Shown: positions 8,847 through 49,403 of the stretch, in pieces
Numbering within the stretch: the stretch's first letter is position 1
How the letters are laid out: every line of letters begins with the position of its first letter
From: an uncultured Verrucomicrobiota bacterium
Lineage (GTDB): Bacteria; Verrucomicrobiota; Verrucomicrobiia; Opitutales; Opitutaceae
NCBI GenBank assembly: GCA_903876795.1
Contig: CAIRBK010000095.1
Coordinates: forward strand, 1-49,403
Reading direction: 5' to 3'
Length of the DNA: 49,403 nucleotides
Notes under the pieces: model-generated
The model's database searches: none
What the model was told of the DNA's origin: nothing
Seen by the model: the letters and a program-made list of their open reading frames with translations, nothing else
Position numbers and translations under genes: made by a program

Positions 8847-8926
8847 TAGATGAAGCCCCTCGCCGATGGAAAGGGAAAAGCCCCGGTCGCTCAGGCGGGC
8901 AGCCTTTTGGGGAAGAGACTCGATTC

Positions 8927-14264: not shown

Positions 14265-14436
14265 GGGTGTGTTTCTGAAATAACTGAGGTCGTCGAACTC
14301 TGCGAGTGAGAGGATAAGCAGGCTGGGCCGGCGTTGCCCTCGACGGTACGACCCGCCGGGTCGCCTCCGTCTCGGTCGTCTTGGCCGAGCCCGCTTCTCC
14401 TCTCACGCCGGCCCGATTCATTTTAGAAGCACACCC
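14265..14436. repeat. 172-bp palindromic intergenic repeat, copy 2
   Basis: Same family as 8675-8846. Terminal repeats GGGTGTGTTTCTGAAAT and its near-complement at 14418-14436, internal hairpin CTCGGTC-GTCTT-GGCCGAG with a G-T pair. It lies in the leader between the ModE-type palindrome and moaA. The dinucleotide TT flanks both sides; copy 1 is flanked by TA. Confidence 0.85.
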
Positions 14437-14775
14437 TTGGCCGATTTGAATTCGCAGGTGCATTCCGGGGGAGTGGGTTGCCGTGCAATCCGTAACAAGA
14501 TACGCGCTCATGACGGTGGGCCTGAATCCGCCGATTGCGCACGACCCCAAAAGGGTTCCGGCCAAGTGCCCGCCGGCGAGCAGTCGGGAAAAGACCTGGC
14601 CGGGCGGAAGCATGAAAGCGGTGCCGGGAGCGAGGTTGCCTTGCGAGCACCGCGTGTTGAGAAAGGGCGCGTGCATCGCCCGGAAAACGACGAGGAAGCG
14701 GTGGCTCCGAAGAACCGGAAAAACAGGGAAAGCACGGTGTGGACCCTCATCGGCGGCAACGTTCGTCAAAACCTT
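14437..14775. other. 339-bp stretch without a convincing gene
   Basis: A minus-strand frame stays open from 14787 (TTG) through this stretch and the repeat to 14173, with hydrophobic pieces such as LLAGGHLAGTLLGSCAIGGF, but it has no good start, no recognisable family and ends in repeat sequence. It may be a decayed gene or a long moaA leader. I looked for a Moco-type riboswitch and could not recognise one. Confidence 0.4.
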
Positions 14776-32430: not shown

Positions 32431-32527
32431 GTCGGAGCGCGTTTTTTAAAGTCGGGAGCCCGTTGGCCGAAGGCGGGGACGAGTGAATTTGACGATGCGG
32501 GGAATCGCCCGTGAACGGGTGCCCGCC

Positions 32528-34381: not shown

Positions 34382-34434
34382 AATTTTTTGCCTGATTAAG
34401 CTCGCGAATTTACGGGCTCGTTCAAACGTGGCGC

Positions 34435-34455
34435 AAGGTAATACCCTATTACCTT
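34435..34455. promoter_or_regulatory. perfect 9-bp-arm palindrome between glmS and glgC
   Basis: Arms AAGGTAATA and TATTACCTT around CCC, in the 103-bp divergent gap, 29 bp before the glgC start. The shape suggests an operator for a dimeric regulator that could act on either gene; a promoter element with an AT-rich core is also possible. Confidence 0.55.
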
Positions 34456-34484
34456 GATCCCCAAGTTATCCCCTAAGAACTCAT

Positions 34485-35771
34485 ATGAGCATGCAGAAAA
34501 AAGTCCTGGCTGTGGTCATGGGTGGCGGTCGCGGCACCCGCCTCTATCCTTTGACAATGGAACGGTGCAAACCGGCGGTCCCGCTCGCGGGAAAATATCG
34601 TCTGGTCGATATTCCGATCAGCAACTGCATCAACTCCGACATCAACCGCATTTTTCTGCTCACGCAGTTTCACACCGCCTCGCTGCACCGGCACACTCAG
34701 AGCACGTATAACTTCGACCCGTTCGGCGGAGGTTTCGTGGACATCCTTTCCGCCGAGCAGACCGAGAAAAACACCAACTGGTATCAAGGCACCGCCGACG
34801 CCGTCCGCCGCAATCTGCAGCATTTCCGCAGCTTCCCGCACGATCTCGTGCTGATCCTTTCCGGCGACCAGCTCTACCGGATGGATTTCCGGAAGATCGT
34901 GGCCGATCACATCGCCAGCAAGGCCGACGTGAGCATCGCGGCCATCCCTTTCCCCGTCTCCAAGGTCGAGGGCCTTGGTCTCATGCAGGTGAACGACGAC
35001 CTGTCGATCAACCGCTTTGTCGAGAAGCCGAAGGATCCCGCCGTGATCCAGAGCCTCACCCTCAGCCCGAAGCTCGAGGCGACTCTGCACTCAAGCTCCG
35101 GCGAGAAGCACTGCCTGGCATCCATGGGCATCTATGTCTTCAACCGTCAGGTGCTGGCGGACGCGCTCGACAACAACATGACCGATTTCGGCAAGGAGGT
35201 CATCCCCAGCCTGCTCGGGAAGAAGCGTCTGTTCGCCCACATTTTCGAGGGTTACTGGGAGGACATCGGCACGGTGAAGGCCTTTTTCGACACCAATCTG
35301 GCGCTTTCCGACCCGCTGCCCCCTTTCAACTTTTTCGACCCGACCGCGCCGATTTACACGCAGGACCGCTACCTGCCGGCCTCCAAGCTGAACAAGTGTT
35401 CCATCGACCATGCGGTCATCGGCGACGGATCCATCATCACGGACTGCGCGCTCAAGCGCTGCGTGCTGGGCATCCGCTCGTTTGTCGGCGAGGGCTCGAA
35501 ACTCACGGAGGTCGTGATGATGGGCGCGGACTATTACGAGACGCCAGAGCAGCAGGAGGCCAACAAGGCCAGGGGCATTCTGAACATCGGAGTCGGCCGC
35601 AACTGCGAGATCGAACACACGATCATCGATAAAAACGCCCGCATCGGTGACAACGTGAAGCTCTCCGCCAAGGGCAAGGCCGACGGCGACTACCCCAACG
35701 GGCTTATCATCCGGGACGGCGTGTTGGTCGTGCCCAAGGGCGCGGTCATTCCCAGCGGCGTCGTGCTGTAA
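34485..35771 (+). CDS. glgC: glucose-1-phosphate adenylyltransferase
   Basis: Makes ADP-glucose for glycogen synthesis. The 428-aa protein has the nucleotidyltransferase start VLAVVMGGGRGTRLYPLTMERCKPAVPLAGKYRLVDIPISNCINS (7-51), SGDQLYRMDF, FVEKPKDP, the EDIGTVKAFFDTN segment and a C-terminal left-handed beta-helix of hexapeptide-like repeats (GDGSIITDCALKRCVLGIRSFVGEGSKL). The length fits the bacterial/plant type. Single-gene unit: divergent from glmS, with a strong terminator after it. Confidence 0.96.
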   Translation: MSMQKKVLAVVMGGGRGTRLYPLTMERCKPAVPLAGKYRLVDIPISNCINSDINRIFLLTQFHTASLHRHTQSTYNFDPFGGGFVDILSAEQTEKNTNWYQGTADAVRRNLQHFRSFPHDLVLILSGDQLYRMDFRKIVADHIASKADVSIAAIPFPVSKVEGLGLMQVNDDLSINRFVEKPKDPAVIQSLTLSPKLEATLHSSSGEKHCLASMGIYVFNRQVLADALDNNMTDFGKEVIPSLLGKKRLFAHIFEGYWEDIGTVKAFFDTNLALSDPLPPFNFFDPTAPIYTQDRYLPASKLNKCSIDHAVIGDGSIITDCALKRCVLGIRSFVGEGSKLTEVVMMGADYYETPEQQEANKARGILNIGVGRNCEIEHTIIDKNARIGDNVKLSAKGKADGDYPNGLIIRDGVLVVPKGAVIPSGVVL

Positions 35772-35790
35772 CCCGGCTCCGTTTAAAACG

Positions 35791-35830
35791 AAAAAGGCGC
35801 GACCCCCACCCGGGGGCCGCGCCTTTTTTT
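35791..35830. terminator. bidirectional intrinsic terminator between glgC and ychF
   Basis: AAAAAGGCGCG, a CCCCC/GGGGG stem and CGCGCCTTTTTTT form a long hairpin with A and T tracts, able to stop both the plus-strand glgC and the convergent minus-strand ychF. Confidence 0.93.
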
Positions 35831-35869
35831 GCGCGCATACCAGAACAGGACGGTTGGCCGTCGCGTGGT

Positions 35870-36973
35870 TCAGTTGTTGAAACGGAACAGAGCGACGTCG
35901 CCGTCCTGAAAGACATATTCCTTACCTTCGAGGCGGTATTTGCCGGCCTCACGCGCCCCGGCCGTGCTGCCCAGGCGGGTAAGATCGTCGTAGGAGACGA
36001 TCTCGGCCTTGATGAAACCCTTCTCGAAATCGGTGTGGATCACACCGGCGGCCTGCGGGGCTTTCCAGCCCTTCTTGATCGTCCAGCAGCGCACTTCCTT
36101 TTCGCCGGCGGTGAAGTAGGTCTGCAAGCCCAGCAGGTCGTAGGTCGCCTTGATCAGTTGGGACACGCCCGAGTCGGTCACGCCGAGGTCCTTGAGGAAC
36201 TCCTTGGCTTCCTCCGGGGAGAGATCGATCAACTCCGCTTCGATGCGGGCGCTGATCGGCACATAGGCGGCGTCGTGGTGGGTCTTCACGAACTCGGCGA
36301 CCTTCTTTACGTAAGGATTTTCCTCGGCGGTCGCGAGGTCGCTCTCGGCGACGTTGCAGGCGTAAAGGACGGGCTTCGCGCTGAGCAGATGGAAGAGTTG
36401 CAGGAGCTTCTTCTCGTCGTCGTTCGCCGCCAGGATGTTGGCGGGTTTGCCGGCGTTGAGGTGGGGGACGAGACGCTCCAGCAGGGAGAACTCCGCGATG
36501 GCGTCCTTGTCGCCGGCCTTGGCGAGCTTCTGGGTTTTGTTGAGGCGTTTTTCGACGGCGTCGAGGTCGGCCAGCACGAGTTCGGTGGTGATCACCTCGA
36601 TGTCGCGCACCGGATCGACGGCGCCCATCGTGTGGATGATGTCGTCGTCAACGAAGCAGCGCACGACGTGTACGATGGCGTCGGTCTCGCGGATATTGGC
36701 GAGGAACTGGTTGCCCAGGCCCTCGCCCTTGCTGGCGCCGGCGACAAGGCCGGCGATGTCCACGAACTCGATCGCGGCGGGCACGACCACATTGGTCTTG
36801 GCGATGCCTTTCAGGACGTAGGCGCGCTCTTCGGGCACCACGACGACACCCACGTTGGGGTCGATCGTGCAAAACGGGTAGTTGGCCGCTTCCGCCTTGC
36901 GGGAGCGGGTGAGGGCGTTGAAGAGGGTGGACTTGCCTACGTTGGGCAGGCCGACGATGCCAGCTTTGAGCAT
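35870..36973 (-). CDS. ychF: redox-regulated ATPase/GTPase YchF
   Basis: Universally conserved OBG-family NTPase associated with the ribosome and stress response. From ATG 36973 the protein is 367 residues: GLPNVGKSTLFNALT (P-loop, 8-22), FVDIAGLVAGASKGEGLGNQFL (G3 region), an internal coiled-coil insertion, YACNVAESD in place of NKxD, and the C-terminal TGS domain with FTAGEKEVRCWTI and GVIHTDFEKGFIKAEI. Starts farther upstream add only a proline-rich leader. Divergent from rpsP. Confidence 0.95.
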   Translation of the reverse strand: MLKAGIVGLPNVGKSTLFNALTRSRKAEAANYPFCTIDPNVGVVVVPEERAYVLKGIAKTNVVVPAAIEFVDIAGLVAGASKGEGLGNQFLANIRETDAIVHVVRCFVDDDIIHTMGAVDPVRDIEVITTELVLADLDAVEKRLNKTQKLAKAGDKDAIAEFSLLERLVPHLNAGKPANILAANDDEKKLLQLFHLLSAKPVLYACNVAESDLATAEENPYVKKVAEFVKTHHDAAYVPISARIEAELIDLSPEEAKEFLKDLGVTDSGVSQLIKATYDLLGLQTYFTAGEKEVRCWTIKKGWKAPQAAGVIHTDFEKGFIKAEIVSYDDLTRLGSTAGAREAGKYRLEGKEYVFQDGDVALFRFNN

Positions 36974-37056
36974 AAGGGGGCGCACGTTCGGACCGAGCGC
37001 CGGACTGGTCAAGGTCCGTCTTTCTTTGTTCCGAGATTATCGCATGAAATGGCTGC

Positions 37057-37085
37057 TTGACATCGCTTGGCGCGTTCGGTGGATT
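37057..37085 (+). promoter_or_regulatory. candidate promoter of the rpsP-trmD-rplS operon
   Basis: A perfect -35 hexamer TTGACA (37057-37062), 17 bp, then TGGATT (37080-37085), which matches TATAAT at only three of six positions. The start of transcription would fall about 38 bp before the rpsP ATG. Inference from motif and position. Confidence 0.4.
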
Positions 37086-37129
37086 CCACGGCTTTTCAAC
37101 TCAAGCAACCTGTCCGTCACATCTCTCTC

Positions 37130-37384
37130 ATGGCCCTCAAAATCCGCCTCTCCCGCATCGGCTCCACGCACAACCCGATCTATCACGTGGTCGTCGCCGA
37201 AGCCCGTTCGCGTCGTGATGGCGCTGCCGTCGAAGTCCTCGGCACGCACAACCCCCGTTCCAAGAACGACTCCCTGAAGCTCAATGTCGAGCGTGCCGAC
37301 TACTGGATCAGCAAAGGCGCCACCCCCACGGACACCGCCTTGTCGCTCATCAAGAAGGCCAAGAAGGCCGCCGTCACCGCCTAA
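37130..37384 (+). CDS. rpsP: 30S ribosomal protein S16
   Basis: An 84-aa ribosomal protein starting MALKIRLSRIGSTHNPIYHVVVAEARSRRDG, the S16 family opening, with KLNVERADYWISKGATPTDTALSLIKKA later. Length typical. ATG 37130 chosen over an earlier in-frame start because the family begins there; no clear Shine-Dalgarno precedes it. First gene of the ribosomal/tRNA-modification group. Confidence 0.97.
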   Translation: MALKIRLSRIGSTHNPIYHVVVAEARSRRDGAAVEVLGTHNPRSKNDSLKLNVERADYWISKGATPTDTALSLIKKAKKAAVTA

Positions 37385-37405
37385 GTTTTCGGCATAACCG
37401 CCCCC

Positions 37406-37440
37406 AAATCGCCCGGCCTTGCGGCTCGGGCGATTTTTTT
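37406..37440 (+). terminator. intrinsic terminator or attenuator between rpsP and trmD
   Basis: Ten-base stem AAATCGCCCG against CGGGCGATTT with an 11-nt loop, followed by further T. It sits in the 74-bp gap inside what is usually one operon and would lower trmD-rplS transcription relative to rpsP unless read through. Confidence 0.9.
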
Positions 37441-37458
37441 TGCCGCCACTTTCAACCC

Positions 37459-38133
37459 ATGCCGCTGCACATCGATGTCCTGACGCTGTTCCCGCGGATG
37501 CTCGACGGCTTTTTGGCCGAGAGCATTCTGGGCAAGGGGATCGAGGGCGGGTTGTTGACCGTCAAGGTCCACGACGTGCGCGATTGGGCGACCAGCAAAC
37601 ACAAGAATGCCGATGATCGGCCGTTCGGTGGTGGTGCCGGCATGCTCATGAAGCCCGAACCGGTTTTCGCAGCCATCGAGCAATTGCAGACTCCGGGTTG
37701 CCGCCGGATTTATCTCACGCCCGACGGCGTGCCGTATTCGCAAAAACTGGCCGGGGAGTTGGCCAAGGAAACCCATCTGATCCTTCTGAGCGGGCACTAC
37801 GAGGGGATCGATCAACGCATCCGCGACAAGATCATCGACCAGGAGATCAGCATCGGCGACTATGTGCTCACCAATGGCACGCTGCCGGCCGCCGTGGTCA
37901 TCGACGCATTGGCGCGCTTGATTCCCGGTGTGCTCGGGGAAGAAAAGTCATTGACGCACGAATCCTTCACCGGCAAGTTGCTCGACTTTCCTCAATACAC
38001 GCGTCCCGCCGAATTCTGCGGCATGTCCGTGCCGGATGTCCTCCTCTCCGGCGACCATGCCAAGATCGAAGAGTGGCGAAACGCCCGTCGTATCGAGAAA
38101 ACCCGCCAAGTCCGACCCGATTTACTCAAATAA
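37459..38133 (+). CDS. trmD: tRNA (guanine-N1)-methyltransferase
   Basis: Methylates G37 of tRNAs to hold the reading frame. The 224-aa SPOUT protein has [15 protein letters not shown] at the start, [30 protein letters not shown] and [31 protein letters not shown] (SAM-binding knot region). Length is slightly under the usual 240-250. Follows rpsP directly without the usual rimM; rplS follows after 17 bp. Confidence 0.96.
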
Positions 38134-38150
38134 CCCAACCTTCAACCGTC

Positions 38151-38519
38151 ATGAGCAACCCGATCATCAAAGAAATCACCGCCAGCCAGGTCAAAAAAGA
38201 CCTCCCTCCCTTCAAGGTCGGCGACGGCGTCCGCGTGCACACCAAGGTGCGCGAGGGTGACAAAGAGCGCATCCAGATTTTCTCCGGCATCGTCATCGCC
38301 ATCAAGGGCAGCGGCATCCACGAGACCTTCACCGTCCGCCGTATCAGCTACGGCGAGGGCGTCGAGCGCGTGTTCCCGACCAGCTCGCCCAACATCGACA
38401 AGATCGAGATCGAGCAGACCTCCGAGCCGATGCGCGCCCGTCTCTATTATCTCCGCGATCGTCTCGGCAAGGCCGCCGTCGCCGTCAAGGCCGAGAAGCG
38501 CGAAGCCGCCGCCAAGTAA
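38151..38519 (+). CDS. rplS: 50S ribosomal protein L19
   Basis: A 122-aa ribosomal protein: [58 protein letters not shown] is the L19 core, followed by [11 protein letters not shown] and [15 protein letters not shown] with a basic/alanine tail. Length typical. ATG 38151 lies 17 bp after trmD. A terminator follows 23 bp after the stop. Confidence 0.97.
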
Positions 38520-38542
38520 ACCATCCGGTTCCACGCATGAGC

Positions 38543-38570
38543 AAAGCGAGTCCATCCGACTCGCTTTTTT
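38543..38570 (+). terminator. intrinsic terminator after rplS
   Basis: AAAGCGAGT-CCATCC-GACTCGCTTTTTT: nine-base stem with a six-base loop and a T tract. Confidence 0.93.
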
Positions 38571-38648
38571 CATGCCCTTTGGGCTTCCCCGTTTGCGATA
38601 GAATCTTTAATTCCAACCCCTTCGTCTCAGAAAAGGCTCCTTTTTATC

Positions 38649-40634
38649 ATGCCACTCCAAACTCATATCCTCGCCCTCGCTGCCAACCAGGCCCGCGGCC
38701 TCGCCATCGACGCCGTGCACAAGTGCTCCTCCGGCCATCTCGGTCTCCCGCTCGGCGCCGCCGAGATCGGTGCCGTTCTCTTTGGCAGCGCGCTTTCCTA
38801 CAACCCCGATGCCCCTCGCTGGATCAATCGCGACCGTTTTGTTCTCTCCGCCGGCCACGGTTCGATGTTCATCTATTCCTGGCTTCACTTGAGCGGTTAC
38901 GACCTCTCCCTCGACGAGGTGAAGAACTTCCGCGCCCTTCACAGCAAGACCCCCGGCCATCCCGAGTTCCACGAGACTCCGGGTGTCGAGTGTACCACCG
39001 GCCCCCTCGGACAGGGCGTCGCCAACGCCACCGGCCTGGCCCTCTCCCTGCAAGCCGCCGCCGCCCGTTTCAACACCGCCGAGCACACCCTCTTTGACAG
39101 CCATGTGATCGCCCTCGCCGGCGACGGCTGCCTGCAGGAGGGCGTCGCCCTCGAAGCCATCGCCTTCGCCGCCCACCAGAAGCTCGACAACCTGATCCTC
39201 ATCTACGACTCCAACGACGTCACCCTCGACGCCATGGCCAACAAGTCGCAGAGCGGCGACGACATCAAGCGCTTCAAGGCCCTCGGCTGGGACGTCCAGC
39301 AGATCGACGGACACGACTTGGTCGCCGTCGCCAAGGCCGTCGCCAAGGCCAAGAAAGCCACCGGCAAGCCCCAGCTCATCATCGCCAAGACGATCATCGC
39401 CAAGGGCATTCCCGAGGTCGCCGGTTCCTCCAAGGGCCACGGCGAAGGCGGCGCCAAGTTCTCCGAAGCCGCCCGCGCCGGCCTCGGTCTCCCCGCCGAC
39501 CAGCACTTCTTTGTGAGCGACGACGTCCGCGCCTATTTCGCCGGCCACAAGAAGAAGCTCGTCCGCGCCTACAAGAAGTGGGGCAAGACCTACGAGGCCT
39601 GGAAGGCCGCCAACCCCGATAAGGCCGCCCTCCTCTCCAGCCGCAACGACGCCCCCGTCGCCGCCAAGTTGCTTGAGAAGACCCCGCTCTTCCCGGCCGA
39701 CGCCAAGCTCGCCACCCGCGCCGCCGGCCAGCAGGTGCTCCAGGCCGTCGCCGCCGAACTCCCGCTGCTCATCGGCGGCAGCGCCGACCTCTACGGCTCC
39801 ACGCTCAACTACATCGCCTCGGATAAGGACTTCGACGAGACCAACCGCGCCGGCCGCAACATCCGCTTCGGCATCCGCGAGCACGCCATGGCCGCCATCG
39901 CCAACGGCGTCGCCTACGACGGCATCTTCCGTCCTTCCGTCGCCACGTTCCTGGTGTTCGCCGACTACTCCCGCCCGGCCATGCGCCTCGCCGCGCTGGC
40001 CAAGCTCCCGGTCATCTACATCTACACCCACGACTCCGTCGGCGTCGGCGAAGACGGCCCGACCCACCAGCCCGTCGAGACGGTCTCCGGCCTGCGCGTG
40101 ATCCCCGGCTTCGACGTGATCCGCCCCGGCGACCCGGAGGAAACCGCCGGCGCCTACGCCGCCGCCCTCGAACGCGTGGACGGCCCCACGCTGCTCGCCC
40201 TCAGCCGCCAGGCGATCCCGCTGCTCAACGACATCCCCGCCGCCACCCGCCGCGAAGGCGTGGCCAAGGGCGCCTACATCGCCGTCATGGAAACGGCCGA
40301 ACTCACCCACATCCTGCTGGCGAGCGGCAGCGAGCTCCAATACGCGGTCAACGCCTCCAAGATCCTCGGCGCCGGCGTGCGCGTCGTCTCGGTGCCCTGT
40401 TTCGAGCGGTTCAACCGCCAGCCGGCCGAGTATCGCGAGAGCGTGCTGCCGAAGTCGGTGCGCAAGCGTGTCGCCATCGAGGCGGGCGTGACCAGCCTGT
40501 GGTATCAATACGTGGGCCTCGACGGCAAGGTGGTCGGCATCGACCGCTTCGGCATGAGCGCCCCCGGCGCGACCGTCTTCAAAGAGCTCGGCATCACCAC
40601 CGAGGCCGTGGTCAAGGCCGCCCAGTCGCTGTAA
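38649..40634 (+). CDS. tkt: transketolase
   Basis: Thiamine-diphosphate enzyme that moves two-carbon units in the pentose phosphate pathway. The 661-aa protein has the N-terminal ThDP domain with [55 protein letters not shown] and the ThDP motif GDGCLQEG...DSND. The pyrimidine domain has [19 protein letters not shown] and [16 protein letters not shown], then a C-terminal domain. Codon use is strongly biased to C-ending codons, as expected of a highly expressed gene. Stands alone between the rplS terminator and a repeat island. Confidence 0.96.
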
Positions 40635-40661
40635 TACCAATCGCGGGATGCTTTTGGACCA

Positions 40662-40832
40662 GGGTGTTTTTCTGAAATCACTCGGGTCGTCGATCTCTGC
40701 GGGTGGGAGGAGCAGCAGGCCGGGCCGGCGTTGTCCTCGACGGCACGCCCCGCCGGGTCGTCTCGGTCTCGGCCTCCTTGGCCGGGACCGCTGCTCCTCT
40801 CACGCCGACCCGATTTTTTTCGGAAACACACC
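40662..40832. repeat. 172-bp-family palindromic repeat, copy 3 (171 bp)
   Basis: Same family as 8675, 14265 and 43820. Terminal repeat GGGTGTTTTTCTGAAAT at the left, complement at the right end; internal hairpin CTCGGCC-TCCTT-GGCCGGG with one T-G pair. It starts 27 bp after the tkt stop and is followed 6 bp later by the second repeat type at 40839. Confidence 0.85.
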
Positions 40833-40838
40833 TTGAAC

Positions 40839-40960
40839 GATCTCCAATCCGAAATCGCTCCGCGATTCCGCTACGATGGGAATCCGTGGCGGAACGGCGG
40901 AGCCGTTTCGTCCGGATAGTGTTAATTCGCGCCACCATTGGCATAAAGACCGCCGCCATC
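40839..40960 (-). repeat. hairpin-rich repeat, copy 1 (inverted relative to 43708-43814)
   Basis: The complement of this stretch matches 43708-43814 strongly over 75 bp (two small hairpins of the form ACGGC-TCC-GCCGT and ATCGC-TCC-GCGAT) and more weakly over the rest to about 40960. With copy 3 of the 172-bp repeat it forms a composite unit that recurs in opposite orientation at 43708-43991. Confidence 0.75.
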
Positions 40961-40972
40961 CTCATCGACGCC

Positions 40973-41000
40973 AAGGCGGGCCCTGCGGGCCCGCCTTTTT
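40973..41000 (+). terminator. intrinsic terminator
   Basis: AAGGCGGGCCC-TGC-GGGCCCGCCTTTTT: eleven-base perfect stem, three-base loop and T tract. It could end tkt transcripts that read through the two repeats. Confidence 0.88.
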
Positions 41001-41086
41001 GGTGAATGCCCCCGGGCCGTCCCTTTCCCGGGGCAACCGCGGATCGGGGGTGGTGGCACGGCGCCTGTAGTTGGTGGGTGGACACG

Positions 41087-41114
41087 AAAAAGCCCGGGCG
41101 AGTTGCCCGGGCTT
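41087..41114 (-). terminator. intrinsic terminator after the sugar kinase gene
   Basis: On the minus strand AAGCCCGGGC-AACTC-GCCCGGGCTTTTT: strong stem with T tract, 45 bp past the kinase stop. Confidence 0.92.
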
Positions 41115-41159
41115 GATGCGATGGCGGACCAGTCCGCCGGCTTTCGGGTTGGGTATCGA

Positions 41160-42254
41160 TCAACGCACCACGCGGGCGCTGCCGCCCTTCATGAGCTTCT
41201 CGACTTCCTTCTGCGTGGCCATGGAGGTGTCGCCGGGGGTGGTCGAGGCAAACGCGCCGTGGGCCGCGCCGTAGTCCACGGCGGCCTGCGGATCGTTCTT
41301 GGAGAGGAAGCCGAACTGGAGGCCCGAGGCGAAGGAATCGCCGCCGCCCACGCGGTCGAGGATCTCCAGGCCGGGATACTTGCGGCTCTCGTGGAACTTG
41401 CCGTCGTGCCAGAGGATCGCGGACCAGTCGTTGACCGTGGCGGTGATGACGTGGCGCAGCGTGGTGGCGGCGACCTTGAAGTTGGGGAATTCCTTCACGG
41501 CGGTCTCGATCATGGTCTTGAAGGCGTCGGTCTCGATGTGGCCGAGCGTTTCCTGGCCCTTGACCTCGAAGCCGAGGGAGGCGGTGAAGTCCTCCTCGTT
41601 GCCGATCATGACATCGACATACTTGGCGATCTCGCGATTGACCTCCTGGGCCTTCTTGAGTCCGCCGATGGTCTTCCACAGGGAGGGGCGGTAGTTGAGG
41701 TCGTAGGAGACGACGGTGCCGTATTTGTTGGCGGCCTTTACGGCCTCGATGGTGAGGGCGGCGGTGGACTCCGAGAGGGCGGCGAAGATGCCGCCGGTGT
41801 GGAACCAGCGCACGCCGAGCTTGCCGAAGATGTAATCCCAGTCGAAGTCGCCGGGCTTGAGCTGCGAGGCGGCGGTGTTGCCGCGGTCGGGCACGCCGAC
41901 GGCGCCGCGGATGCCGAAGCCGCGCTCGGTGAAGTTGAGACCGTTGCGCACGGTGCGGCCGATGCCGTCGTCTTCGCGCCACTTTATGAAATCGGTGGCG
42001 ACGCCACCCTGCATGATGAAGTCCTCGACGAGGTGGCCGACTTCGTTGTCCATGAAGGCGGTGCACACGGCGGTCTTCAGGTTGAAGCATTTGCGCAGAC
42101 CGCGCGAGGTGTTGTATTCGCCGCCGCCTTCCCAGGCGGTGAAGTGGCGGGCGGTGCGCACGCGGCCCTCGCCCGGGTCGAGGCGGAGCATGACTTCGCC
42201 GAGCGAGAGCTGGGCGTATTGGCATTCGGAGGCGGGACGGATTTTAAGGCTCAT
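41160..42254 (-). CDS. PfkB family sugar kinase (2-keto-3-deoxygluconate kinase-like)
   Basis: A 364-aa ribokinase-family kinase. Landmarks: LGEVMLRLDPGEGRVRTARHF at the start, WEGGGEYNTSRGLRKCF, SYDLNYRPSLW, VMIGNEEDF and the catalytic GGGDSFASGL (Asp base) near residue 310. The family phosphorylates sugars such as 2-keto-3-deoxygluconate or fructose; LDP, YNTSRGL and DLNYRPSLW resemble KDG kinases, but the substrate is not certain. Single gene, lying between two inverted composite repeats, with its own terminator. Confidence 0.88.
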   Translation of the reverse strand: MSLKIRPASECQYAQLSLGEVMLRLDPGEGRVRTARHFTAWEGGGEYNTSRGLRKCFNLKTAVCTAFMDNEVGHLVEDFIMQGGVATDFIKWREDDGIGRTVRNGLNFTERGFGIRGAVGVPDRGNTAASQLKPGDFDWDYIFGKLGVRWFHTGGIFAALSESTAALTIEAVKAANKYGTVVSYDLNYRPSLWKTIGGLKKAQEVNREIAKYVDVMIGNEEDFTASLGFEVKGQETLGHIETDAFKTMIETAVKEFPNFKVAATTLRHVITATVNDWSAILWHDGKFHESRKYPGLEILDRVGGGDSFASGLQFGFLSKNDPQAAVDYGAAHGAFASTTPGDTSMATQKEVEKLMKGGSARVVR

Positions 42255-42465
42255 AAGCGTTGGGGATGGTGTGGAAAAAGACGAAAAACGGCTGTCACCT
42301 TAGCGGGGTCGGCCAAAGCGGGGAAAGGGCTAAATGGTTCCATTTCTGGATGAAGCCGATGGCCGTTAGCACGCAGGCGACCCAAACCCACCGCCGCCAA
42401 GGATGCACGCGGCGACATCGGCAAACAGATGCAGACGCTGCGGCCCACCGGAACCGCCATAAGAG

Positions 42466-42879
42466 TCATATCACTTCCCAAGTGAACACCCCCCGGGGAA
42501 GATTGCCGGATAAGGACGCCAACTGGTCCGCTCCGGTGAGAGCCTTGTCCGTCAACGTTGGCTCAGGGGCGGCCGATGTCAGCGCCTTGTCGGCCAATGT
42601 CGAAGGTGAGTCCGGCCAAGACGGCGCCTTGTTTGGCAATGTAGCCACCTTGTTGATCAATGTCGGCGGTCTGTCCGGCAACAAAGATGCCCGGGCCGAA
42701 ATTTTTTTTGCTCTGTCAGCCAACAGCGGCGGCTTGTTTGGCCAATGTTTTACACTGTCCGACATTCTTTTATCCAGTCCTTCAATGTTTTGGCTAGTCT
42801 GGCAATGTTTTGGTTTGTCGGCCAATGTTGGCGGATGAGCCCACCTCGCTTTAGGCGTGAACGTTGGGACAAGGGGCAT
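42466..42879 (-). CDS. possible heptad-repeat protein (TLADKAx repeats)
   Basis: A 137-aa frame from ATG 42879 whose residues fall in sevens: TLADKPK, LLADRAK, LLPDRPP, TLINKVA, TLPNKAP, TLADKAL, TLTDKAL and others more degenerate. It is rich in Leu/Asp/Lys with regular spacing, so a helical or beta-solenoid-like fold is possible. No good Shine-Dalgarno lies before the start. The opposite strand is also open across the same DNA with an LSANVGG-type heptad, so the coding strand, or whether it codes at all, is uncertain. Function unknown. Confidence 0.35.
   Translation of the reverse strand: MPLVPTFTPKARWAHPPTLADKPKHCQTSQNIEGLDKRMSDSVKHWPNKPPLLADRAKKISARASLLPDRPPTLINKVATLPNKAPSWPDSPSTLADKALTSAAPEPTLTDKALTGADQLASLSGNLPRGVFTWEVI
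42543..42836. repeat. degenerate 21-bp tandem repeat, about 14 units
   Basis: The core (C)CTTGTCGGCCAATGTNGNN recurs at 42543, 42585, 42606, 42627, 42648, 42669, 42711, 42732 and 42816, always offset by multiples of 21; units between are degraded. The period equals seven codons, so both strands stay open in one frame. The other part of the 42255-42950 gap (42255-42465 and 42880-42950) has no gene that I can support; 42930-42947 includes AAGAAAGGA, the likely ribosome binding site of the next gene. Confidence 0.8.
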
Positions 42880-42950
42880 GTTCTTTGCTTTATTTAACGC
42901 AGGGGTTACGCGTTTGTGATCCCGCGATCTATAAAAAAGAAAGGATACCC

Positions 42951-43709
42951 ATGCCCGATAAATTGATAGCTCAGCCGGCGGCCACGACAGCCACCGCCGC
43001 GCCCTCGCCTAAAACCACTCGTGGCGTCATCAACAAGTCCTACTTGGACGAAGTCCAGGCCGCCCGCAAAGTCGCGGCGGCCGCAGTGCAAAAAGACCAC
43101 GTCGCCGGTCTGGCCGGCGTCGAGTGCGACCCCGGCTTGGCCCCGGCCATCGTGACGCTGGCCGACGAGATCGACGTCGCGCTGGGCCAGCTCACCGGCA
43201 CCCGCGCCGCCAAGAAAACCGCCACGGTGGAGGAAGCCAGCGCTCGCGGGGCTCTGCTCGCCGTGCTCCAGCCGATCCAGACCGCCGCCAAGCGCACCTT
43301 TGCCGAGGACCAGTCCACCCTCCGCGAGGCCTATGGCATCGGCCGGGGGCTTTCCGGCGAAACCCTCGCCAGCGTGCTCACCCTCGCGCGCGGAGTGCTC
43401 GCCCGCCTCACGCCCGGCGAAGGCGGCAAGCCCCCGGTTGACAAGCTCCCCGGCATCACCGCCGACAAAGGTATCGCCGAGCTCGCCGATGCGATCAGCC
43501 GCTACGGTGCGAAAGACGCCGCCCAAGGCGGGCAAAAAACCGTGGCCGCCGCGACGCTGGAGCAAATCGAGATCGACATCGCCAAACTCGCGGACCTGCG
43601 CCGCCAGGTGCAACTGGCCGCCGACCAGGCCTGGCCCTGGCGCACGCCGGGCGTGGTCACGATCCGCAAAAGTTTCCTCCTCCCGCCGACCCGCCCCCTG
43701 AACGAGTGA
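42951..43709 (+). CDS. hypothetical alanine-rich helical protein
   Basis: A 252-aa protein I do not recognise. From ATG 42951, preceded by an AGAAAGGA ribosome binding site, it starts MPDKLIAQPAATTATAAPSP (a low-complexity linker) followed by mostly helical sequence rich in Ala, Leu, Lys and Glu (SYLDEVQAARKVAAAAVQKD; LADEIDVALGQLTGTRAAKK; ATLEQIEIDIAKLADLRRQV). The C-terminus is different, WPWRTPGVVTIRKSFLLPP, and may form a strand or tail. No signal peptide or membrane helix. It lies directly after the heptad-repeat tract and directly before an inverted composite repeat, so it may be part of a mobile or accessory unit. Confidence 0.65.
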   Translation: MPDKLIAQPAATTATAAPSPKTTRGVINKSYLDEVQAARKVAAAAVQKDHVAGLAGVECDPGLAPAIVTLADEIDVALGQLTGTRAAKKTATVEEASARGALLAVLQPIQTAAKRTFAEDQSTLREAYGIGRGLSGETLASVLTLARGVLARLTPGEGGKPPVDKLPGITADKGIAELADAISRYGAKDAAQGGQKTVAAATLEQIEIDIAKLADLRRQVQLAADQAWPWRTPGVVTIRKSFLLPPTRPLNE

Positions 43710-43814: not shown

Positions 43815-43819
43815 GTCCA

Positions 43820-43991
43820 GGGTGTGCTTCTGCAATCACCCAGGCCGTCGAACTCTCCGAGTGAGAGGATAAACAGGCTGGGCCGGCGTTGTCCTCGACG
43901 GCACGACCCGCCGGGTCGCCTCCGTCCCGGTCGCCTTGGCCGGGCTCGCTTCCCCGCTCACGCCGACCCGATTGTTTTCAGAAACACACCC
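43820..43991. repeat. 172-bp palindromic intergenic repeat, copy 4
   Basis: Terminal repeats GGGTGTGCTTCTGCAAT and the complement at 43975-43991. The internal hairpin reads CCCGGTC-GCCTT-GGCCGGG (43926-43944): compared with copy 1 both arms changed together (T-A to C-G), a compensatory change. Confidence 0.85.
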
Positions 43992-44161
43992 TTCGGCGAT
44001 GGTCCGCAAGGCGGTGCCCAACTATCTCCTGCAAGCAGGCTCCTGCCTGGAGGCGTGGCCATGATCGCCGTGTGTGACAACGCCCGTCCCCGGGCGTTTG
44101 GGTTGAGGGGGCAGCGTCCGGGGACGGACGCTGCTGCACCGGGGTAATTCAGAAACACAAC
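43992..44161. other. hairpins and a solo repeat end before the cellulase stop
   Basis: No gene seen. Contains CGCCCG-TCC-CCGGGCG-like (about 44080) and a perfect GCAGCGTCC-GGGGAC-GGACGCTGC hairpin (44111-44134). From 44147 the sequence ATTCAGAAACACAACCTA matches the right end of the 172-bp repeat without any body, and overlaps the TAG stop (44162-44164) of the minus-strand gene. Confidence 0.6.
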
Positions 44162-47100
44162 CTACCGGGCGTTAAAGGCGGCGCTGCCGAAGGCGCGGCG
44201 GCCGTCGGGCCAGGCGACCTCCACTTCGATCCATTGAGGACCGGGGTGTCGCGGCACAAGTGTCCAGCTTGGCCCGATGCCCGGCTCCTGGTCGCGGCCT
44301 TCCCAGACGATGCGTGCTGCGGAGTGATCGAGTCCGGGCGTTTGCACGCTTACAGATACGGGTGAGCCGACTGCCGCGAAATCGGGAGCGTTGATGATGG
44401 CTGCGGCGGGTTTCCACGGTCCGGTGCGCGGGGCCGTAGGCTCCACCAGCGCGGCCAACGCGAGGATGCTGCGCGCCTGGTTTACGGTGATAAACTCCGC
44501 GGTGGTGTTCCAGGCGTCGCTCCAGCGGTCATAGAACGGATAGGGAGCGGACGCCGCCTCGTCGGCAGGAAACGTCAGCGCGCCGAGTTCCCGTCCGTAG
44601 AGCGGAAGCCAGTCGAAGCCCGCCTGGATGTTGCCCAGGGGCAGGCCGGTCGGGGGCAGCCGCCGGCGGTCGTTGTTGGCGAACTGGTGGACGATCACCC
44701 GCGGGCGACGCAGCCCGAGCCCGGAGACAAAGCAGAGGTTGAGGGGGTTGGTGCCGCCTTCGTAGTTAAGATTCCCCACGAGGGCGTCGATGTAGCCGGC
44801 GCGCGGCCAAAGCCGGTGGGCGACGGCCAGGTCGGCGGCCTGATCGAGCGAGAAATACCAGCCGGCGGCGCGAAACCGTTTCATCGCCTCGGGAAATCCG
44901 GTCGCGTAGGCATTCTGGCGGGAGGAGAGCAGGGCGAGTTCGGCGGCGGCGGCGATCTCGGTCTCGCATTTTTTCAAGTGGATGCGATCCAGCTGCTCCG
45001 GGCGCAGGCGTCCGGTGCGGGCGGCGAAGGCGTAGCTGCGGATGGCGTTTCCGTAGGAAAACGCGAGCCGCACCCAGCCCCAGCGGAACGTGGCGGGATC
45101 GCCGGGATCGGGAAACCATTCGAGGAGCTGCCGCCGGTAATCGGCGTCACCGGTGGCCAGATACAGCTCTGTCGCGGCCCAGGACAGTTCGTCGTTGTGG
45201 GCGAATTCGTCGCCGTAGAAGGTGATTTTTTGGTAGGAGCCGGCCAGCCCGTGCTGGGCGATGGCGTCGCTCAAAAAGCTCCAGCCAAGGCGGGCCTTTT
45301 CCAGGTAGGCTTCCGCCTCGGCCGGGTAACGAAGTTTGAAGGCGGGCGACGACGCGCACTGGGCAAGGGCGGCGACCGCCGCAGCCGTGGCGGCGGTGTT
45401 TTTGGGCCAGACCACCTGCGGGTCGCCATCGCGGCCTTCGGTCAGAGGTACATCGTTCTCGTATTCACGGTTCTTGGGATAGACCAGAAAGTAGAAGCCG
45501 CCATCGGCGTCCTGGAGTTTGGCGAGAAGGTCGGCCTCGATCCTGGCCTCCTGCAGCAGATCGCCGATCCCGTCGCCGCTCTCCGGAAGGCCGAGGTTGT
45601 CCAGCGCGCCGACCTCCGGGAAGGCGTCGGCGGTGAACACCAGCGTGTGTACGAGCGCGGCGACGTTGATGGTGTATTTGCTGTAGTCGCCGGCGTCGTG
45701 GTGTCCGCCGGAGACGTCGATGGGGCCTTTGTTGACGAAGGGGTAAAGTTGCGAGGATGGGTCCTTGAGTTGAGGGGCGGTTTGCAAGGGACCGGGCGTG
45801 CTTTTCGAGGCGATGGTGGCCCAGGTGGAGGAATATTCAGGCCCGGCGACCGGCACCCCCGCCGGGGCGAGGTGGCAGGCGTCGTGGGCGAAGCGGGTGA
45901 AGGGCAGGCCGAGGGTGAAGCCGCAGCGCTGGTGGAGCAGGCCGAGCGCGTAGGTGCGCAGCCAGTTTATGGCGACGCCGTCGTCGATCCGAAAGGCGGT
46001 CGAGGCGCCGAGACCGGGCACCACGAGACGGTAACCGCCGGGGGCGGTCACGGCGCTGAAATCGGCCTGAAGCACATTTTGGTAAGGGGGAGGCGTGTCG
46101 GTGTATCCGACGTCGCGGCGCGGCGTGAGCATGCCGGTGAAGACCGTTTCTCCCGTATCAACGCGCGCGATGCGGAAAACCGCCAGATCCCTCACCGGCA
46201 GCTCGCCGAGGTCGCCGAGGTAGTAGCCGATCATCGCCTTCTTGGGGTGGGCGGGGGCGTAGCCCTCCTGGTTTACATGGATGGCCGGGCTATGGCGTAA
46301 CGGATCTGTGGAGACGGCGTAGGTTTCTTTGGCGGGCCAGAGCTGGCCGCCGGGATTTTTCAAGACGACGGACCGGCCTTCGGGCACGGGCTCGGAGAGC
46401 CGGAGGTAGAGCGCGTTGTCGATGCGCAAGTCGCGCACGTTGAGATCGGCAAAGGCGACGCGGCGCTTGAAGCCAATCGCCGCCACTTTTACCGGAACGC
46501 CCTCCACGCTGACTTGAAATTGGGTGTCCGGGGGCGCCAGGAAGCGGCCGGAAGCGGTGACGAAATTCCAAGCCTCGGGTGGTCGCGGATCGGGCGGCTT
46601 GGTCGTGATCCGACGCGCCTCCAGCAGCGTCGGAGTGAGCGCGCGGAGTTCATGATCGCCCGCGGCGGGCGGGCGCAGCCATGACGCGCCATCTTGCCCG
46701 GTCGGCTGGGCGCGCGCGCCGGACGGCGCCTGCAGGGCGACGAGCAGAACCGGCAGCAAGGCGGCCGGAGCGAGCGACGGGCGCGGATCGGGGATCGTCT
46801 CCGCGTGGGTGCCCCGGGCCAGCGAGGGAAAGAGCCGGTCGCGCAGGCGCAACGAGGGATTCTCGATGAGGCGGGCAAAAAACCACCCGGCCAGAATCGC
46901 AACGACGCCGTAGCCCGCCGTGCCGATCACCCAGATCAAGCCCGGAGGCATATCCGTGGTGGCAAGCAGGCGGACAATTTTTTTCACGGGCGTCTGCCCC
47001 AGATCCACATGCCACAGGTAGATCGAGTAGCTCAGGAAACCGATTTCACCGAGCCATGCCGCCGGGCGGCTCGCCACCAGGCGTGCTCCGAAGGCGTGGA

Positions 47101-47986
47101 CGTCGGCCACATGCAGCCAGCCGAGCAAGATCAGGCCGAAGCCGGCATACATGCCCGTGAGCCCCAGGCTTGCGAGCCAGGGACCGGCCTCGGGCGCGAA
47201 GGCCAGCACGGGCGCGGCCAGCAGGATGCCGACCGCGATGAGCGCGAGGGGGTGCCGTGAAAATCCCGTGAGTTTCTCCCGGTGAAAATGCGACCAGTAG
47301 GCCAGCAGCGTGCCGATGAGCAGCCCGTCGAGGCGGAGATGACTGGCGTAAAGATTCATGTTCTCCGCCCCGTCGCGGAGGTAGCTTGCGTGACGCAGAC
47401 CCGCCGACATCGCCAACGCTCCGAGCACGCAGGCCGGCAGCACGCGGAGAAACTCAGCCAGCCGGCGCGCGCGCAGCAGCAGCAGAAAGAAGAGCGCGAG
47501 CCCGAGATAAAAATGCTCCTCAAGGGCCAGGCTCCAGGTGTGGATGCGCGGGGTGTGGAAGTAGTTTTGAACGTGCAGGAGATTCGGCCACAGCTCCCGG
47601 ATGACGCCTTCGTTTTTCCCCTGCCAGTGCTGCCACCCCAGCCAGACGGCCAGCACGGCGAGGTAAACGACGTAGGGCGGCCAGATCTTGAAGCCGCGCC
47701 GTATGACGAAGCGGCGCACATCCACGTCCTGGCGTTGCCGGTATTCCGCGAAAAAAAGCCCGCTTACGAGGAAACCGCTGAGCACGAAAAACAGATCCAC
47801 GGCGGCCCAGCCGACGGCCTTCCAGCCCACGATCAACGGGGTGAGAAACCCCAGGCCGGCCGGTGACATCACATCGTGGCGGCCCAGCACCATGAGCAGC
47901 GCGAACCCTCGCAGCATGTCCAGCGGGAGGGAACGACCGTGTCGCCAGCGGGAGGCCGGGACGGGGAGGTGTGTGGGGCCTTGCAT
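44162..47986 (-). CDS. fusion of acyltransferase-3 membrane domain and GH9 cellulase
   Basis: One uninterrupted frame of 1274 residues from ATG 47986. Residues 1 to about 400 are an acyltransferase-3 (OafA/YrhL-type) domain: RSLPLDMLRGFALLMVLGRHD, AVDLFFVLSGFLVSG, IHTWSLALEEHFYLGLALFF, LDGLLIGTLLAYW and about ten helices. This family moves acetyl or succinyl groups onto sugars across the membrane. A hydrophobic stretch at about 420-440 (PAALLPVLLVALQAPSGARA) looks like an old signal peptide. Then a GH9 N-terminal Ig-like domain (HVNQEGYAPAHPKKAMIGY) and the (alpha/alpha)6 catalytic domain with GGHHDAGDYSKYT (nucleophile/base Asp pair), GGTNPLNLCFVSGLG and the acid Glu region TTAEFITVNQARS. 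A final Ig-like module follows. The hydrolase would sit outside the inner membrane. A TTG start before the signal-like stretch is the main alternative (two genes). Confidence 0.8.
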   Translation of the reverse strand: MQGPTHLPVPASRWRHGRSLPLDMLRGFALLMVLGRHDVMSPAGLGFLTPLIVGWKAVGWAAVDLFFVLSGFLVSGLFFAEYRQRQDVDVRRFVIRRGFKIWPPYVVYLAVLAVWLGWQHWQGKNEGVIRELWPNLLHVQNYFHTPRIHTWSLALEEHFYLGLALFFLLLLRARRLAEFLRVLPACVLGALAMSAGLRHASYLRDGAENMNLYASHLRLDGLLIGTLLAYWSHFHREKLTGFSRHPLALIAVGILLAAPVLAFAPEAGPWLASLGLTGMYAGFGLILLGWLHVADVHAFGARLVASRPAAWLGEIGFLSYSIYLWHVDLGQTPVKKIVRLLATTDMPPGLIWVIGTAGYGVVAILAGWFFARLIENPSLRLRDRLFPSLARGTHAETIPDPRPSLAPAALLPVLLVALQAPSGARAQPTGQDGASWLRPPAAGDHELRALTPTLLEARRITTKPPDPRPPEAWNFVTASGRFLAPPDTQFQVSVEGVPVKVAAIGFKRRVAFADLNVRDLRIDNALYLRLSEPVPEGRSVVLKNPGGQLWPAKETYAVSTDPLRHSPAIHVNQEGYAPAHPKKAMIGYYLGDLGELPVRDLAVFRIARVDTGETVFTGMLTPRRDVGYTDTPPPYQNVLQADFSAVTAPGGYRLVVPGLGASTAFRIDDGVAINWLRTYALGLLHQRCGFTLGLPFTRFAHDACHLAPAGVPVAGPEYSSTWATIASKSTPGPLQTAPQLKDPSSQLYPFVNKGPIDVSGGHHDAGDYSKYTINVAALVHTLVFTADAFPEVGALDNLGLPESGDGIGDLLQEARIEADLLAKLQDADGGFYFLVYPKNREYENDVPLTEGRDGDPQVVWPKNTAATAAAVAALAQCASSPAFKLRYPAEAEAYLEKARLGWSFLSDAIAQHGLAGSYQKITFYGDEFAHNDELSWAATELYLATGDADYRRQLLEWFPDPGDPATFRWGWVRLAFSYGNAIRSYAFAARTGRLRPEQLDRIHLKKCETEIAAAAELALLSSRQNAYATGFPEAMKRFRAAGWYFSLDQAADLAVAHRLWPRAGYIDALVGNLNYEGGTNPLNLCFVSGLGLRRPRVIVHQFANNDRRRLPPTGLPLGNIQAGFDWLPLYGRELGALTFPADEAASAPYPFYDRWSDAWNTTAEFITVNQARSILALAALVEPTAPRTGPWKPAAAIINAPDFAAVGSPVSVSVQTPGLDHSAARIVWEGRDQEPGIGPSWTLVPRHPGPQWIEVEVAWPDGRRAFGSAAFNAR

Positions 47987-48148: not shown

Positions 48149-49000
48149 ATGACCACCCGAAACCTGAAAAAACTGCTGCGCACGGTGCAGACCTGTTTTC
48201 CCGCGCTGCTCGAAACCAAGTTCAGGGTGATGCGTTTCTACCGGAACTTTTTCGGTGTTCCGTTTGAAAACGATTTCAACGCTCTCGCGCTTTTCCCCGA
48301 GCAACCGGGCGCCCTCTATCTGGACGTGGGGGCCAATCGCGGGCAGAGCACCGACGCGATCCTGATGAAGCGCGCGGGGGTGAAGATCCAGCTCTTCGAA
48401 CCCAACCACGAGCTGTGCGACGGGCTGGTAAAGATGTTCGGTGAAGTGCCGAACGTGGAGATCAATAACTTCGGTCTCGGTGACGAGTCCGCCGAGGACA
48501 TCCTGGTCGTGCCCTCCTACAAGAAGTGGCTCTTTGACGGACTCGGCTCCTTTCGCGAAGCGGAGGCGCGCGATTGGCTGAGGGGCCGGATGTTTTTTTT
48601 CAAGGAGAAGCACCTGAGGCTGCACCGGAGCCGCAGCCGTGTGGAGCGGCTCGATGATCTGAACTTGGCGCCGTTATTCATCAAGCTCGACATCCAAGGC
48701 TACGAGTTGCGGGCCCTGAAAGGCGGTGAGAAAACCATCGTGACGCACGAGCCGGTGTTGCTGATAGAGTCACCCGGGGACGAATTGGTCGCCTACCTTG
48801 GGGATTTGGGTTTCCACATGTATGCGTTTCGGAGGGGGCGTTTTGTCCCCGGGGAACGCGGTGCGCCCAATACGTTTTTTATGACGTCGAGCCGGGCGGC
48901 GCTCGTGCGGTCGTATATCCGCAACGCGCGGGCCGATTACCCTGCGGCCGCGCCCGGCTACGCATCGGTGCGCAAGTGCCCCGGTTCACTGTTCCGGTGA
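48149..49000 (+). CDS. FkbM family methyltransferase
   Basis: A 283-aa SAM-dependent methyltransferase. The SAM-binding start LYLDVGANRGQSTDAIL (57-73), the acidic loop IQLFEPNHELC and the FkbM strand FIKLDIQGYELRALKGGEKTI (about 176-196) are clear. FkbM-type enzymes O-methylate sugars or other small molecules, often in surface polysaccharide clusters. Divergent from the acyltransferase-cellulase gene across 162 bp, so a joint role on cell-surface glycans is possible but unproven. The C-terminal 50 residues are not typical of the family. Confidence 0.9.
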   Translation: MTTRNLKKLLRTVQTCFPALLETKFRVMRFYRNFFGVPFENDFNALALFPEQPGALYLDVGANRGQSTDAILMKRAGVKIQLFEPNHELCDGLVKMFGEVPNVEINNFGLGDESAEDILVVPSYKKWLFDGLGSFREAEARDWLRGRMFFFKEKHLRLHRSRSRVERLDDLNLAPLFIKLDIQGYELRALKGGEKTIVTHEPVLLIESPGDELVAYLGDLGFHMYAFRRGRFVPGERGAPNTFFMTSSRAALVRSYIRNARADYPAAAPGYASVRKCPGSLFR

Positions 49001-49056
49001 GTGGCGTCCTGGACGGCCCGCCTATGCCAACCGACATTTTTGTTGGTTTAAAATGA

Positions 49057-49403
49057 GTTAAAATCCGCGCCCCGCTCCGAAGAGCGGGGCGACCGGCGGC
49101 GGATCTCGACCACGAGGCGCGGGGCGTGTTTCAATCCGCGCCCCGCTCCGAAGAGCGGGGCGACGGGCACCCTTGGCGGCGTCGGCCGCATCACGGATGT
49201 TTCAATCCGCGCCCCGCTCCGAAGAGCGGGGCGACGCGTGGGATCGGCGGGCGCGTGGGTGGAGGTGCTGGTTTCAATCCGCGCCCCGCTCCGAAGAGCG
49301 GGGCGACGGTCTCCATCAATCGCATTCGCTGGCTTCGCCTGTTTCAATCCGCGCCCCGCTCCGAAGAGCGGGGCGACAGCCACGCGGCCCCAGCGCCTAG
49401 CTC
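49057..49403 (-). CRISPR. CRISPR array (start of), 37-bp repeats
   Basis: Five repeats at 49057-49093, 49128-49164, 49199-49235, 49271-49307 and 49341-49377, with spacers of 34, 34, 35 and 33 bp, and a sixth spacer cut by the window edge. On the plus strand repeats start GTTTCAATCC and end GGGGCGAC; on the minus strand they end GGATTGAAAC, giving an ATTGAAAC 5' handle. Each repeat holds a ten-base stem CGCCCCGCTC/GAGCGGGGCG closed by a TTCG tetraloop. The leftmost repeat differs (GTTAAAATCC), as terminal trailer repeats do, so transcription is probably on the minus strand with the leader to the right of the window. No cas gene is present. Confidence 0.96.

What the first reader, a model, noticed from the sequence alone, without database searches (positions are those of the whole stretch)
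44162..47986. Acyltransferase-3 membrane domain fused to a GH9 cellulase
One frame of 1274 residues joins a ten-helix O-acyltransferase to an Ig-GH9-Ig secreted hydrolase, with a signal-peptide-like stretch at the joint. Such a protein could tether a beta-glucanase outside the inner membrane and acylate the sugars it binds or releases, or modify an own cellulose-like polymer. I know of no described enzyme with this pairing.
Basis: partly seen in the sequence, partly recalled or inferred. Interest (0 to 1): 0.72.

Follow-up and report, generated by a model that had tools for sequence, protein, structure and literature searches.

The report
Membrane acyltransferase fused to GH9 glucanase
In one Opitutaceae genome, two neighbouring genes that are separate in its close relatives, one for a membrane enzyme that decorates sugars and one for a secreted enzyme that cuts sugar chains, have merged into a single gene, perhaps to tailor the cell's own slime polysaccharide.

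Summary
Window 44162-47986 (minus strand) is one open frame of 1274 residues holding Acyl_transf_3 (E 2.9e-18), CelD_N and GH9 (E 2.4e-37). Its origin is now clear. In two genomes of the same genus the same acyltransferase and the orthologous GH9 are adjacent genes that overlap by ATGA. In the window that stop/start overlap is gone and the frames coincide; no ATG or GTG lies in any frame strictly between 46886 and 46692, so no single indel gives back the ATGA-type layout. Matches covering both halves in one frame were seen in this genome alone among 252 of the family and 387 drawn from the phylum (two candidates scored per genome). The former GH9 signal peptide now follows the acyltransferase, where it could act as an 11th helix or be cleaved at ARA|Q (inferred). 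Genes of this GH9 family lie within 15 kb of a polysaccharide export or polymerase gene in 15 of 43 clusters, but the fused locus does not. I read the pair as exopolysaccharide acylation plus trimming. It is a single-genome fusion, a new variant of the known AT3 fusions, without biochemical test.

The parts
44162..47986 (-). Fused acyltransferase-3 / GH9 gene, 1274 codons, ATG start
46874..47923 (-). Acyl_transf_3 (PF01757) membrane domain
   Evidence: Pfam E 2.9e-18; coordinates
47876..47911 (-). R-X10-H motif (R26, H37 of the protein), reported as absolutely conserved in AT3 domains
   Evidence: motif from PMC9833829 passages
47672..47701 (-). RRGFKIWPPY, place (by eye) of the RXXR motif of AT3 domains; reads RXXK here and in both relatives
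   Evidence: motif
46850..46852 (-). In-frame TTG codon (residue 379 of the protein), a candidate internal start
46784..46849 (-). Linker in which the ATGA stop/start overlap of the relatives has been lost
46715..46783 (-). Hydrophobic segment at the joint (former GH9 signal peptide; possible 11th transmembrane helix); holds a second in-frame TTG at 46759
   Evidence: hydropathy; relatives; TTG
46709..46717 (-). ARA, possible signal-peptidase site before Q
   Evidence: A-x-A rule recalled
46007..46294 (-). CelD_N Ig-like domain
   Evidence: Pfam E 5.2e-14
44663..45934 (-). GH9 catalytic domain (Pfam-matched part)
   Evidence: Pfam E 2.4e-37; GH9 fold
45674..45709 (-). GGHHDAGDYSKY, the DAGD aspartate pair of GH9
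   Evidence: aligned to CelD and 3x17; invariant in 12 of 12
44477..44506 (-). TTAEFITVNQ, candidate catalytic acid Glu
   Evidence: nearly invariant Glu; assignment by recalled motif position, outside the aligned part
44168..44419 (-). C-terminal beta-sandwich, probably the PKD/Ig-like domain
   Evidence: strands in the model; PKD chains among Foldseek matches, TM 0.74-0.81 by target, no aligned range given

Best explanation
The gene is a true in-frame fusion of two genes that form an overlapping pair in two relatives: an AT3 membrane acyltransferase and a secreted CelD_N-GH9 glucanase of an Opitutaceae subfamily. The stop/start overlap was lost, and the GH9 signal peptide became an internal hydrophobic segment after the end of the AT3 domain. 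It carries the GH9 part to the periplasm as an 11th helix, or is cut there by signal peptidase so that the two old products are made from one chain. The likely job is tailoring the cell's own exopolysaccharide: AT3 acylates it, GH9 trims it. Shown: sequence, fusion, two-gene layout in relatives, orthology, selection on both halves, link of the wider GH9 family to export and polymerase genes. Inferred: topology, cleavage, substrate, chemistry, and that this copy does the same as its family.
For: Two-gene ATGA overlap in G002 and G012. The window GH9 falls in a clade with those two GH9 genes and G008_C153, support 100/100. Changes sit mainly in third codon positions in both halves: acyltransferase 0.55-0.56 third against 0.20-0.21 second, GH9 0.47-0.51 against 0.19-0.20. 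No ATG or GTG in any frame strictly between 46886 and 46692. GH9 clusters have a Poly_export gene within 5 kb in 7 of 43 (at most 0.60 expected) and a Wzy_C gene within 15 kb in 10 of 43 (at most 1.46). In G008 contig C14 the order is two Poly_export genes, AT3, GH9. The pair stays together while the fetched flanks differ in all three genomes. AT3-SGNH proteins use an 11th helix to place their extra domain outside (passages). A GH9 xanthanase, acting on a bacterial exopolysaccharide, is among the structural matches (6fhj, Z 21.2).
Against: The fusion is seen in one assembly of 103 contigs only. The fused locus and the two adjacent-pair loci are not near export or polymerase genes; the window neighbours are housekeeping genes and an FkbM methyltransferase. 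Wzy_C within 5 kb is at chance, 1 of 43. The AT3-GH9 nearness (5 of 43 within 5 kb) rests on the window-type pair: without that clade it is 2 of 39 against at most 0.43, P 0.07. Genomes in these counts are related. The RXXR motif reads RXXK. No transmembrane, signal-peptide or activity test was possible.
Confidence: 0.47

Rival explanations
1. Two proteins are still made: the GH9 part is started anew inside the frame at a TTG (46852 or 46759), so the fused frame is only a reading-frame accident.
For: In-frame TTG codons exist at both places, and the first would give a basic N-end before the hydrophobic stretch.
Against: By eye, no good ribosome-binding site precedes either TTG. The relatives' GH9 starts also lack one and seem to depend on the ATGA overlap, which is gone here. 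The second TTG lies inside the hydrophobic stretch.
Confidence: 0.2
2. The fusion is an assembly or sequencing error in a fragmented genome.
For: 103 contigs; no second genome of the species seen; no reads available. With one indel a TTG-started GH9 frame (46878) with a long overlap would be conceivable.
Against: No single indel makes the relatives' ATGA layout, because no ATG or GTG lies in any frame of the joint, and the other frames run about 50 residues or more past the joint before a stop. The two halves are neighbours in relatives, so it is no chimera.
Confidence: 0.12
3. The protein is a tethered plant-polysaccharide cellulase whose acyltransferase modifies the sugars taken or released.
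For: GH9 and CelD_N match solved endoglucanases and a xyloglucanase.
Against: Ten neighbouring genes from 30931 to 43706 scanned with Pfam are housekeeping or without a match, with no sugar-uptake gene. The wider GH9 family is tied to polysaccharide export and polymerase genes. The HxR stretch of cellulases reads VHQFA here (motif recalled).
Confidence: 0.13

Closest known systems
AT3-SGNH acyltransferases (OafA, OafB, OatA)
   Same: AT3 membrane domain with a C-terminal extracytoplasmic domain joined through an added hydrophobic segment (passages)
   Different: The added domain is a GH9 hydrolase, unrelated to SGNH; it is a separate gene in two relatives
AT3-alanine racemase fusions
   Same: Another C-terminal fusion to an AT3 domain (passages)
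   Different: Different partner and enzyme class
CelD-type GH9 endoglucanases (C. thermocellum CelD 1clc, 3x17, BoGH9A 6dht)
   Same: CelD_N Ig domain plus GH9 domain, DAGD aspartates, GH9 fold
   Different: Fused to a membrane acyltransferase, an extra beta-rich N-terminal stretch without a match, a C-terminal beta domain, divergent last third of the catalytic domain
GH9 xanthanase (6fhj, 6fhn)
   Same: GH9 fold (Z 21.2); named as acting on xanthan, a bacterial exopolysaccharide
   Different: Low identity (15-16%); no acyltransferase; substrate of the window protein unknown
Exopolysaccharide operons with an acyltransferase and a glycanase (ExoZ/ExoK, GumF/GumG, BcsZ; recalled, no call)
   Same: Acylation and chain trimming of an own polymer
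   Different: Other hydrolase families; no fusion known to me

Membership tests
Acyltransferase-3 (PF01757) | Match to the family profile above cut-off | tested here: met
   66.4 bits against 31
Acyltransferase-3 (PF01757) | R-X10-H motif in helix 1 (called absolutely conserved) | tested here: met
   R26 and H37; motif
Acyltransferase-3 (PF01757) | RXXR motif at helix 3 (called highly, not absolutely, conserved; not taken as defining here) | tested here: not met
   RGFK, i.e. RXXK, by eye in the window, G002 and G012; Lys for Arg, shared with the stand-alone relatives
Acyltransferase-3 (PF01757) | Ten transmembrane helices | tested here: inconclusive
   nine overlapping segments by hydropathy; model failed
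Glycoside hydrolase family 9 (PF00759) | Match to the family profile above cut-off | tested here: met
   129.7 bits against 27.7
Glycoside hydrolase family 9 (PF00759) | GH9 fold | tested here: met
   3x17 Z 25.9, rmsd 3.6 over 328 residues; mean pLDDT of the model 57.7
Glycoside hydrolase family 9 (PF00759) | DAGD aspartate pair | tested here: met
Glycoside hydrolase family 9 (PF00759) | Catalytic acid Glu near the C-end | tested here: inconclusive
   near-invariant Glu in TTAEFITVNQ; outside the aligned part
AT3-SGNH fusion proteins | C-terminal SGNH domain | tested here: not met
   no SGNH match among the four Pfam families listed at E up to 1; a GH9 domain stands there. Not filed under this family
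AT3-SGNH fusion proteins | 11th helix that carries the added domain outward | tested here: inconclusive
   hydrophobic segment 402-424 after a basic stretch; topology not measured
Exopolysaccharide-tailoring glycanase | Gene in or near a polysaccharide export or polymerase cluster | tested here: inconclusive
   15 of 43 clusters of the GH9 family, not the fused locus

The most novel reading that the evidence does not exclude
The fusion stays one chain in the membrane and works as a unit: the GH9 cleft holds the exopolysaccharide and presents or times it for acylation by the AT3 domain, so that a glycosidase domain does for this AT3 what SGNH does in OafB.
Probability: 0.12. Interest if true: 0.65.

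Novelty: new variant of a known kind. Interest (0 to 1): 0.36.

Why it matters
Both the two-gene form with an ATGA overlap and the fused form of the same pair can be read in one genus, so the path of the fusion is visible. The work also points to a GH9 subfamily, found mostly in Opitutaceae here, that goes with exopolysaccharide export and polymerase genes; if so, counting such genes as biomass cellulases in metagenome surveys would mislead. It bears on the question, asked in PMC9558356 (passage), of whether stand-alone AT3 proteins need a partner protein.

Tried and rejected
Rejected: chimeric contig (the halves are neighbours in two relatives); single-indel loss of an ATGA layout. An Rfam element in the window (0 matches) and tRNA genes were not found.

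Led nowhere: AlphaFold of the AT3 half plus joint with two sequences (pLDDT 38). AlphaFold of the GH9 half was only moderate (57.7); Foldseek gave one hit at E up to 0.001, a GH9 with poor superposition, and PKD-domain hits; the second look gave clear GH9 matches over model residues of about 250-768 and tells little about the end domains. Paper searches for the pairing listed nothing on it; searches for exopolysaccharide context and internal signal peptides gave nothing useful. One search mixed protein rows into a DNA database and was repeated cleanly.

Corrected: the nearness count had left out three AT3 rows that passed the cut-off and one Wzy_C row that passed only with its neighbours. One search repeats it with these rows in (53 GH9 places, 107 Poly_export, 109 Wzy_C, 87 AT3) and also without the window's clade. 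The AT3-GH9 nearness did not hold up outside that clade (2 of 39, P 0.07), so I lowered the main confidence from 0.50 to 0.47 and no longer claim a general AT3 link.

Limits: only the two best candidates per genome were scored. The chance level assumes even spread over rounded genome sizes and independent genomes. From, 4 of 57 rows (AT3-only matches) were dropped before the count, 5 of 92 rows and, 11 of 120 rows lay below the cut-off and were dropped. Gene calls come from a simple codon-usage script of my own.

Full report
What is there. The frame 44162-47986 on the minus strand is open for 1274 codons from ATG 47986. Pfam gives Acyl_transf_3 (46874-47923), CelD_N (46007-46294) and GH9 (44663-45934), each above its cut-off (coordinates). 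The AT3 R-X10-H motif is present; the RXXR motif reads RXXK by eye, here and in the two close relatives (motifs from passages of PMC9833829). The GH9 part has the GH9 fold (3x17, Z 25.9, rmsd 3.6 over 328 residues; mean pLDDT 57.7). Its DAGD aspartates align with solved endoglucanases and are invariant in 12 of 12 family members aligned. The candidate catalytic Glu lies outside the aligned part and rests on conservation and a recalled motif. PKD-like domains are among the Foldseek matches; I place this domain at the C-end from the strands of the model, which no alignment range confirms.

Where it comes from. In G002 and G012, two genomes of the same genus, the same acyltransferase (61-62% identical) is followed by the orthologous GH9 gene (68-69%), and the two overlap by ATGA, with no Shine-Dalgarno-like sequence seen by eye before the GH9 start. 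A tree of 16 GH9 sequences puts the window copy with those two and G008_C153 at 100/100 support, apart from the second GH9 copies of G000, G002, G012 and G008. In G008 the clade member starts 49 bases from a contig end with its own ATG and no acyltransferase before it in the stretch held. In the window the overlap is missing and the frames coincide. The in-frame start codons near the joint are TTG at 46852 and 46759; no ATG or GTG lies in any frame strictly between 46886 and 46692 (alignment). A single-base error therefore cannot hide the ATGA layout, though a TTG start at 46878 in another frame with a long overlap remains conceivable. Both halves show the third-position excess of selected genes. 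Between the window, 15 kb around the pair in G002 and the 11.7 kb contig of G012, only the pair itself (and frames antisense to or overlapping it) matched, so the pair kept together while its surroundings changed.

How common it is. Of 13 genomes of the genus, 252 of the family and 387 drawn from the phylum, only the window genome gave a match covering both halves without a stop; searches scored two candidates per genome. A search with the acyltransferase half alone (all or up to seven candidates scored) matched in 25 of 252 genomes; the close ones after G012 and G002 are G018 (56%), G094 (49%) and G184 (44%). Among open frames of the loci then held (L001-L071), only the two copies of the window locus had both halves. 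In the named collection 12 loci encode relatives, 8 of them titled Opitutaceae; one, CANIXX010000088.1, has the length and gene places of G012 contig C88. That the window is Opitutaceae is inferred from this shared genus.

What it may do. In 23 genomes with this GH9 family I counted 53 GH9 places in 43 clusters. Poly_export genes lie within 5 kb of 7 of 43 clusters (expected at most 0.60) and within 15 kb of 8 of 43 (at most 1.44); Wzy_C lies within 15 kb of 10 of 43 (at most 1.46) but within 5 kb of only 1 of 43 (at most 0.60). Poly_export or Wzy_C lies within 15 kb of 15 of 43. AT3 genes lie within 5 kb of 5 of 43 (at most 0.47), but three of these are the window-type pair; without its clade it is 2 of 39 (at most 0.43, P 0.07), so a general AT3 link is not shown. 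The two others, G008 contig C14 and G018 contig C23, have different AT3 genes just upstream of GH9 on the same strand. Against the reading, the fused locus and the two adjacent-pair loci are not among the clusters near export or polymerase genes; the window neighbours are housekeeping genes and an FkbM methyltransferase; and relatives are not independent. I still think exopolysaccharide tailoring more likely than digestion of plant cellulose. A GH9 xanthanase among the structural matches shows that GH9 enzymes named for a bacterial exopolysaccharide exist; other acylation and trimming systems are recalled.

How the fused chain may work. The last AT3 segment ends near residue 372, a basic stretch follows, then the hydrophobic segment 402-424, with ARA|Q at 424-427. 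In AT3-SGNH proteins an 11th helix places the added domain outside (passages only). Here the old GH9 signal peptide would do this and may still be cleaved. This is inference; the model of this part failed.

Literature. I read passages of PMC9558356, PMC9833829 and PMC4928363, and search listings only for the rest. The passages name AT3 fusions to SGNH and alanine racemase, and others in eukaryotes; none names GH9. The library holds open papers only.

Verdict. The fusion is real as far as the sequence can tell, is so far seen in one genome, and has a plain origin. It is a new variant of the known AT3 fusion proteins, of moderate interest.

Noticed in passing
window 43817-43993, 14265-14438, 8674-8847, 40659-40832: Dispersed intergenic repeat of about 177 bases with imperfect inverted ends, one copy just downstream of the fusion gene; 43 matches reported in this genome, itself included, nearly all others at 83-91% (only 40 of 148 candidates scored), and matches in 7 of the 12 other genomes of the genus. 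The minus strand folds strongly, z -5.0. No Rfam match. It looks like a MITE.
   Followed up: partly
window 49050-49403: CRISPR-like array at the contig end, five copies of a 37-base repeat spaced 70-72 bases, the copy at 49050 degenerate.
   Followed up: no
L002 (G000:C65) 2-2944 and 3371-4441: Second GH9 copy of this genome, cut by the contig start, followed by an ORF that looks like Cas3 (name by eye).
   Followed up: no
window 48149-49000: FkbM methyltransferase gene divergent from the fusion gene (Pfam Methyltransf_21, E 4.1e-10).
   Followed up: partly
L038, L040, L043, L071: The same GH9 module sits in very large proteins (open frames of 1680-2534 aa); Pfam scans of three of them (not L071) show Big_7 Ig domains in two. 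The module often changes its N-terminal partner.
   Followed up: partly
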